In this document: piece after piece, positions 18,574 to 20,490 of the stretch
How the letters are laid out: the number at the start of each line of letters is the position of its first letter
Position numbering within the stretch: the first letter of the stretch is position 1
From: a virus
Reading direction: 5' to 3' (one strand)
Length of the DNA: 21,815 nt
IMG/VR virus record: IMGVR_UViG_3300033144_002700
Location: 1-21,815 of that record
The notes under the pieces: generated by a model
The model's database searches: none
Told to the model about the DNA's origin: nothing
Seen by the model: only the letters and a program-made list of their open reading frames with translations
Program-made: the position numbers and the translations under genes

Positions 18574-19426
18574 TCTGTCAATATACCCACTACCTAACTA
18601 ATTGAAAACCAACCCCTCTTCCTATCTAATTGTAGTTATTATATATGTTTACTTACTATTAAGTATTGATCCTGCCCCTCCCAGTATTCAGTTCACCAGA
18701 ATAATGTGTGGCACTATACTGCTATATAGCTAACTCTACTCTTTCTTATTAGTATATGCATCGATATTGGATGCGTCCGCATATCCGAGCGCATGTTCGT
18801 CCGCATATATAGGTACCTGCTATATAGATACCCCTCCCCCTTAATTTATTGGTAGTCAACAAGTTAGGGATGCCTATTTCCTGTCTGGGAGAAAAAACTA
18901 CTAGGGGGGCGTTTACAGGGTGTTCGTGTATGTGGGGGTACTATTATATACATCCGGCCCCTCCCCTATCTGAGGGAAAACCGAACCGCGACAAATGCAC
19001 CTTATGAGAGGGCGTAACTATCTTTACCTCTTTTTGGGGCTAATTGATTGAGGGCCAACACGTTACAGGGGGTGATTATTGTCGTTATTTGGCCTATTTG
19101 TCGTGGTTTTGGGGGGTTGTGAGTTGTTTTGGCGCTCGTCTGTAGGAAGAAGTACATAACCCAATCCCCTTAATCCCAGTGATACCAACGCTTTGCGGCT
19201 GCATTGCGCTCGCATCACCTTAGCATACTACACACACACGGTTAACACTATATTAAGCCTATTATGTTAAGATGTCCAACTAATTACGCTAATTTTATTC
19301 TATTGATCCTCAGTTAGTTACAAGTTATTTGTTGCGTTCTCGTAACTTTTATTGAAGTATCAGCGTTACACTATACAACACCAACAAACAAACATTCATC
19401 AATACACACACTAACACACATACATT
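18574..19426. other. Gene-free divergent region; candidate origin or control region
   Basis: About 850 bases separate leftward and rightward genes and carry no credible coding frame. The first third is A/T-rich with short direct repeats (listed separately). The middle has C-rich runs on the plus strand (CCCCTCCCCC, CCCCTCCCC) and then G-rich runs (GGGGGGCG, GTGGGGG, TTTTGGGGGG). The last ~60 bases before 19427 are A/C-rich, nearly free of G, and probably form an unstructured leader. A hairpin GTGAT/ATCAC (19179 and 19214) encloses a G/C-rich segment. No exact rightward TAnnTTTG box was found. Such a region may hold the replication origin and the promoters for both arms. Confidence 0.5.
18719..18827. 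repeat. Nested pair of 11-base direct repeats
   Basis: CTGCTATATAG occurs at 18719-18729 and 18817-18827, and between them CGTCCGCATAT occurs at 18774-18784 and 18798-18808 (24 bases apart, near two helical turns). A small hairpin GCATC/GATGC (18758-18774) lies between. Repeats of this size and spacing resemble protein-binding iterons or operators. Confidence 0.55.
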
Positions 19427-19891: not shown

Positions 19892-20151
19892 TATTGCCTA
19901 GGGTGTACGCAATAGCGTGAACCGGTGCCACATTGGAACCACCACACCCACTAGTTAACCGCCGCCGAAAGGTAGCAACCGGACAAATGCACGTCTTTAC
20001 GTGTGCCCTCTTTAGGGTGTCCAATAGTGTTGCCACTTAGTATGCGTATTATAATAGCGGGGACATCTTGAATGGATTGCATTAATACTAACAATGCAGC
20101 ACCCTTGTGACTCGGGGTTAATAGACCAACAACACAGACACGGAACAGCCG

Positions 20152-20169
20152 TATCAATTGATAGCTATC
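20152..20169. repeat. Overlapping palindromes
   Basis: TATCAATTGATA (20152-20163) is a perfect 12-base palindrome that overlaps GATAGCTATC (20160-20169), a perfect 10-base palindrome. They may be alternative hairpin arms of the RNA or a dimeric protein site. Confidence 0.4.
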
Positions 20170-20359
20170 TGGCAGCATCTTGTTAATCATCGCCGCGATT
20201 GAAATATCGCCGAGAACCTTAGTAAAGGGGAAACAGTCAGAACAAACAACAACCTATTCACCACTACAAACGTGAGTAGGCCACAGGTCACAATGATCTG
20301 TACACTAAAGTGTCCGCTGTATCTGCGTAGTGGACGATAAGCTCAACGCAGAGACAACT

Positions 20360-20395
20360 AGCACCGAGGCAACCATAAGACCTCGGTGCTTTTAT
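20360..20395 (+). terminator. Terminator-like hairpin ending the structured RNA region
   Basis: AGCACCGAGG (20360-20369) pairs perfectly with CCTCGGTGCT (20381-20390) across an 11-base loop and runs into TTTAT. The T-run is short, so termination may be partial; the tRNA begins three bases later. Confidence 0.7.
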
Positions 20396-20397
20396 AT

Positions 20398-20471
20398 GTT
20401 CCAGTAGCTCAGTGGCAAGAGCACTCGCCTACAAACGTGAGAGGTCGCAGGTTCGAATCCTGTCTGGAATA
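20398..20471 (+). tRNA. tRNA with an apparent eight-base anticodon loop (identity unresolved)
   Basis: A full cloverleaf can be drawn: acceptor GTTCCAG/CTGGAAT (20398-20404 with 20464-20470, first pair G-U), D stem GCTC/GAGC, anticodon stem CTCGC/GTGAG (one G-U), T stem GCAGG/CCTGT with the standard TTCGAAT loop, discriminator A 20471. CCA is not encoded. The anticodon loop reads CTACAAAC (20429-20436), eight bases; taking the T as position 33 gives anticodon ACA (codon UGU, Cys), which is unusual because Cys tRNAs normally have GCA. Total length 74 instead of 73 reflects the extra base. It could be a frameshift-type or decoy tRNA, a decayed gene, or affected by a sequencing error. Confidence 0.85.
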
Positions 20472-20490
20472 CTCATCAACAATCAATACA

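What the first reader, a model, noticed from the sequence alone, without database searches (positions are those of the whole stretch)
19892..20395. Large structured phage noncoding RNA upstream of a tRNA
About 500 gene-free bases carry many independent perfect stems, including a possible three-way junction (GGACA/TGTCC around two hairpins with identical CTTT loops), nine- and seven-pair stems in succession, and an H-type pseudoknot, ending in a 10-pair terminator-like hairpin just before a tRNA. GOLLD and ROOL are known large ornate phage/prophage RNAs often near tRNAs; this could be a member, a distant relative or a new class. I did not recognise their conserved sequences here.
Basis: partly seen in the sequence, partly recalled or inferred. 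Interest (0 to 1): 0.82.

Follow-up and report, generated by a model that had tools for sequence, protein, structure and literature searches.

The report
Structured phage early RNA beside tRNA
A phage, probably of Bacteroidota bacteria, carries about 500 non-coding bases at the head of its early genes that look like a genuine folded RNA ending next to an odd tRNA; it matches no known RNA family, and related phages carry folded RNAs at the same place, some cut off by self-cleaving ribozymes.

Summary
The anatomy is real. 19892-20395 is non-coding in all six frames. It holds the two-hairpin junction with identical UCUUUA loops, 9- and 8-pair stems, an H-type pseudoknot (20311-20352; 10/2000 shuffles as good, best of 170 windows in the record) and a 10-pair terminator-like hairpin 8 bases before a tRNA-like gene. 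Folding energy alone (z about -2.6) is not exceptional here. GOLLD, ROOL and every other Rfam family fail. New: 20237-20301 resembles the tRNA itself, with the same 13-base anticodon loop and 3' strand (5/4000 shuffles), and the tRNA has an 8-base anticodon loop. No independent homologue was found, so covariation could not be tested on this RNA. One terminase relative (L014) shares two colinear motifs at the matching place, with two compensated pairs. Other relatives have large non-coding stretches at the head of the early operon; one such leader family covaries strongly (17 of 44 pairs changed on both sides, 0/500 shuffles). Hammerhead-like ribozymes, a tRNA-like element and terminators sit at these boundaries. 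Best reading: a discrete, fast-evolving early phage RNA separated from downstream mRNA by a terminator and/or tRNA processing. Trans or cis function is undecided.

The parts
18574..19426 (.). Divergent intergenic region between the late (-) and early (+) modules; presumed promoters
   Evidence: ORF layout; the same divergent layout in L014, L016, L017, L019
19427..19891 (+). g154, first early gene, 154 aa, Lys/Ala-rich, no family match
   Evidence: codon log-odds +0.28, though it was in the training set
19892..20395 (+). Candidate structured non-coding RNA
   Evidence: non-coding in six frames; folds and motifs
19901..19949 (+). 5' three-way junction: GGGTGT/ACACCC around ACGC-AAUA-GCGU and GGUG...CACC; contains ACATTGGAACC shared with L014
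19961..19976 (+). GCCGCC-GAAA-GGUAGC hairpin (GNRA loop)
19981..20022 (+). GGACA/TGTCC junction with two UCUUUA-loop hairpins
   Evidence: an L014 counterpart with two compensated pairs
20027..20170 (+). Central domain, structure uncertain
   Evidence: MFE only
20233..20320 (+). tRNA-like junction: ACAGU/GCUGU closing stem, anticodon-arm-like hairpin, T-arm-like hairpin, extra ACAC-UAAA-GUGU hairpin
   Evidence: alignment to the tRNA reached in 5/4000 dinucleotide shuffles
20264..20276 (+). CTACAAACGTGAG, identical to 20429-20441 in the tRNA anticodon arm
20311..20352 (+). H-type pseudoknot, stems of 8 and 7 pairs, L2 = 0
20360..20390 (+). 10-pair terminator-like hairpin followed by TTTATAT
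20398..20472 (+). tRNA, cloverleaf complete, 8-nt anticodon loop CUACAAAC, isotype not assignable
   Evidence: ARAGORN 'tRNA-??? (acaa)'; Rfam tRNA 58 bits

Best explanation
The 504 bases encode a discrete, structured, non-coding RNA made early in infection. The early operon is transcribed rightward through g154, the RNA, the tRNA and the small early genes. The 10-pair hairpin ends part of the transcripts; where transcription reads on, the tRNA directs RNase P (5') and 3' tRNA processing (3'), which separates the structured RNA from the downstream mRNA. Relatives show a comparable boundary with other devices: a hammerhead-like ribozyme, a tRNA-like 3' end, or a terminator. Shown here: non-coding status, the stems and pseudoknot beyond chance, the tRNA-like module, the position, and covariation in one relatives' leader family. 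Inferred: transcription, early timing, processing, and that the released RNA rather than the passage of polymerase is the functional product.
For: Non-coding in all frames. H-type pseudoknot the best of 170 windows, p about 0.005; longest stem p about 0.007. Terminase relatives (about 54-71% identity) show the same divergent layout where the contig reaches it, with 0.4-1.3 kb of non-coding sequence at the head of the early module. L014 (64% relative) has, in the gene-free stretch after its first early gene, ACATTGGAACC.CCAC.C.C.CTA (E about 0.004; 75/4000 shuffles) followed by GGAC..GCCAG-UCUUUA-CUGGC..GUCC (such a hairpin in 1/4000 shuffles), colinear with the window and with two compensated pairs. 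Leader RNA of L050/L051/L072: 22 of 83 pairs changed on both sides against 8.1 in shuffles, 0/500; a model of it found L079 at E 4e-12, in the gene-free stretch upstream of its terminase, and with L079 added 17 of 44 pairs are compensated, 0/500. Hammerhead-like cores with conserved GGTTAA stem I follow that leader in L072 and L079 and lie between the first early ORFs in L038, L043, L062. L218's long non-coding leader ends in a 104-nt element with 7-pair acceptor and T arm.
Against: No covariation data for this RNA: its only copies are the same phage. Folding energy is not exceptional within the phage. Models of two of its modules find nothing convincing in relatives, and the covarying leader model does not hit it. 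In the window the RNA follows a gene, whereas in L050/L072/L079 it precedes the first gene. No transcript data. The early promoter and the host phylum are inferred only.
Confidence: 0.5

Rival explanations
1. Cis-acting leader: the pseudoknot, the competing tRNA-like junction and the terminator hairpin form an attenuator or antitermination element that sets how much polymerase reaches the tRNA and the early genes; the RNA itself has no separate role.
For: The pseudoknot and the junction's closing stem are mutually exclusive and lie directly upstream of the terminator-like hairpin. Leaders in L079, L216, L218 and L072 carry GTTCTTTGACAT-like words that resemble, from memory, the boxA of Bacteroidota rRNA operons.
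Against: 504 nt with several modules is more than an attenuator needs; no boxA-like word was found in the window by the scan; no ligand or protein partner is suggested.
Confidence: 0.22
2. Degraded tRNA array: the stretch is the remains of duplicated tRNA genes and spacer, with one recognisable pseudo-tRNA (20237-20301).
For: The tRNA aligns along most of its length to 20234-20301 (score 102, 5/4000 shuffles); relatives also have odd tRNA-like elements.
Against: Explains only about 70 of 504 bases; the pseudoknot, the two UCUUUA hairpins and the terminator are not tRNA parts; the L014 counterpart has no tRNA call.
Confidence: 0.13
3. tRNA mimic or decoy: the anticodon-arm copy inside the RNA and the 8-base-loop tRNA together absorb or escape a host tRNA-cutting defence.
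For: Identical 13-nt loop and 3' strand in both; altered anticodon loops in phage tRNAs have been proposed as escape from anticodon nucleases (PMC10264068).
Against: No defence system or cognate host tRNA is known here; one module only.
Confidence: 0.08
4. DNA element (origin or packaging/regulatory region) or unremarkable spacer.
For: Inverted repeats occur in origins; the fold energy is ordinary for the genome.
Against: Several helices hold one G-U pair on the + strand (read); the pseudoknot and the relatives' covariation are RNA features.
Confidence: 0.07

Closest known systems
ROOL RNA (RF03087)
   Same: large structured RNA of phages and prophages, often near tRNAs (PMC12286853)
   Different: no match above cut-off to the 574-position model in this phage or relatives; shares no sequence or tested structure
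GOLLD RNA (RF02032)
   Same: large phage RNA near tRNAs; tRNAs sometimes lie in its linker region (PMC12286853)
   Different: no match at E <= 10 in 25 records; here the tRNA follows the RNA
Early-leader RNA of L050/L051/L072/L079 (found here, model R3)
   Same: non-coding, several hundred nt, at the head of the early module of terminase-related phages; in L072 and L079 followed by a hammerhead-like element
   Different: the window does not match its covariance model; the window RNA follows the first early gene
Gene-free stretch of L014 (contig 3300025326_000125)
   Same: lies between the first early gene and the next small genes, ends in a terminator hairpin; shares the ACATTGGAACC and GGAC-UCUUUA-GUCC motifs in order
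   Different: the rest is not alignable; the R1 model gives only 5.7 bits for the shared hairpin; no tRNA call

Membership tests
ROOL | match to RF03087 above the gathering score | tested here: not met
ROOL | homo-oligomeric RNA cage | not testable with these tools
   needs biochemistry or cryo-EM
GOLLD | match to RF02032 above the gathering score | tested here: not met
Any other Rfam 15 family | match at or above gathering score | tested here: not met
   only tRNA at 20398-20471; the best sub-threshold hits elsewhere look like chance
tmRNA | tRNA-like ends plus tag reading frame | tested here: not met
   ARAGORN reports only a tRNA; no Rfam tmRNA match
Hammerhead ribozyme | CUGANGA / GAAA core with three stems and a NUH site | tested here: not met
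   none in the window; found in relatives
Early-leader RNA family R3 | match to the covariance model of L050/L051/L072 | tested here: not met
   best in-window score 2.8 bits with filters off
Same RNA class as L014 | shared sequence and structure in order | tested here: inconclusive
   two colinear motifs beyond chance, no full-length model match

The most novel reading that the evidence does not exclude
A new class of large phage RNA: early-operon RNAs that diverge fast in sequence and are each separated from the following mRNA by an exchangeable device (hammerhead ribozyme, tRNA-like element, true tRNA or terminator); the window's member also carries an internal copy of the adjacent tRNA's anticodon arm.
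Probability: 0.3. Interest if true: 0.75.

Novelty: new variant of a known kind. Interest (0 to 1): 0.5.

Why it matters
Large phage RNAs such as GOLLD and ROOL are known but their functions are not. A phage group whose early operons repeatedly carry structured RNAs, separated from the mRNA by ribozymes or tRNAs, would give a comparative system in which the separating device and the RNA can be studied apart.

Tried and rejected
GOLLD/ROOL and all Rfam families (one search used a wrong accession and is not evidence about GOLLD). blastn of the region alone against phage and plasmid records: only chance hits. Models R1 and R2 against relatives: nothing convincing. Loop-loop pairing of the UCUUUA loops with GUAAAG (20222-20227) and CUAAAG (20305-20310) is possible but expected by chance too often to count. 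An H-type pseudoknot that I saw by eye before the L014 terminator was not among the best candidates there. One search used a mis-registered structure string; replace it.

Full report
What was checked. The window is an IMG/VR virus record of 21,815 bases. It encodes a P22-type portal, a terminase and other genes on the minus strand; after an 853-base divergent intergenic region, small genes run on the plus strand. Two further contigs of the same phage (G001, G002) carry the region with at most one substitution, at 20024; G002 extends the early module by about 7 kb, in which no further tRNA was found.

The observation. The 504 bases are non-coding in all six frames. The strongest single feature is the H-type pseudoknot at 20311-20352, reached by 10 of 2000 dinucleotide shuffles and by no window of the record that does not contain it. 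The 10-pair hairpin at 20360-20390 is followed by TTTATAT. The energy of the whole stretch is only moderately low (z -2.67) and several other windows of this phage, coding ones included, are as low, so energy is not the argument.

The tRNA and its echo. The tRNA at 20398-20472 has a complete cloverleaf but an 8-base anticodon loop, CUACAAAC, so no isotype is assigned. The RNA contains CTACAAACGTGAG, identical to the tRNA's loop and 3' stem strand, within a module that aligns to the tRNA from acceptor to T arm (score 102; 5 of 4000 shuffles) and folds as a junction with anticodon-arm-like and T-arm-like hairpins. The pseudoknot and the closing stem of this module use the same bases.

Relatives. 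Terminase relatives were collected. Those whose contigs reach far enough show the divergent layout, with 0.4-1.3 kb of non-coding sequence at the head of the early module. L014 (64% terminase identity) has a gene-free stretch, as in the window, after the first early gene and before a terminator hairpin. It shares ACATTGGAACC.CCAC.C.C.CTA (75/4000 shuffles) and, a few tens of bases on, a GGAC...GUCC bracket around a UCUUUA hairpin (such a hairpin in 1/4000 shuffles), where GCACG/CGUGC in the model of the window corresponds to GCCAG/CUGGC, two compensated pairs. The motifs were chosen after seeing both sequences, so these numbers flatter the match; full-length models do not link the two. I call homology probable, not shown.

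A real RNA at this position in relatives. L050, L051 and L072 have alignable leaders; 22 of 83 consensus pairs are changed on both sides against 8.1 expected, 0/500 shuffles, and sliding the partners removes the signal. The structure came from these three sequences, so an independent test matters: the model R3 found L079 (E 4e-12) in the gene-free stretch upstream of its terminase, and with it 17 of 44 pairs are compensated. The window does not match this model.

Boundaries. Hammerhead-like cores with a conserved GGTTAA stem I follow the leader in L072 and L079 and lie between the first early ORFs in L038, L043 and L062; their stem II sequences covary (GCUU/AAGC, GUCU/AGAC, GUCC/GGAC), which I read off the sequences. 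Rfam scores two of them at 18-22 bits, below its cut-off. L218's leader ends in a 104-base tRNA-like element found by a strict acceptor plus T-arm scan; L014 has a terminator; the window has a terminator-like hairpin and a tRNA. The common factor is an element that can separate the leading RNA, or the first gene, from what follows. This is the basis of the proposed mechanism; the processing itself is inference.

What it is not. ROOL and GOLLD models give no match above cut-off here or in 22 relatives' records; no other Rfam family fits; it is not a tmRNA and contains no hammerhead core.

Limits. No covariation on the RNA itself, no transcript, no known host; the Bacteroidota assignment rests on promoter-like TATATTTG words in relatives and on a recurrent AATCAATATCAAC word before early genes, read with general knowledge. 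Functional claims are therefore marked as inferred.

Noticed in passing
L216:5237-5582 (+) and L216:1707-1769 (-): A 60% terminase relative carries a tmRNA (ARAGORN tag AKVINLFTPQLRVAA; Rfam tmRNA_permuted 71.7 bits) and a Pistol ribozyme (58 bits).
   Followed up: no
L072:5918, L079:275, L038:5889, L043:3305, L062:6119 (all -): Hammerhead-like ribozymes with conserved GGTTAA/TTAACC stem I at early-operon boundaries; the two checked score below Rfam's cut-off.
   Followed up: partly
L047:9252, L070:17462, L080:13284 (-); L027:7931, L040:10035 (-): 62-base tRNA-like elements with acceptor, D-like and T arms but little room for an anticodon arm, and longer-insert versions of 110 and 158 bases.
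   Followed up: no
L079:491, L216:3633, L218:1991, L072:6247 (all -): GTTCTTTGACAT-like words inside early leaders, resembling boxA of Bacteroidota rRNA operons from memory.
   Followed up: no
L088:4264-9683: Recurrent AATCAATATCAAC word just before early genes, perhaps a leader or ribosome-binding signal.
   Followed up: no
window:20398-20472: Phage tRNA with an 8-base anticodon loop (ACAA), a possible four-base decoder or nuclease-resistant tRNA.
   Followed up: partly
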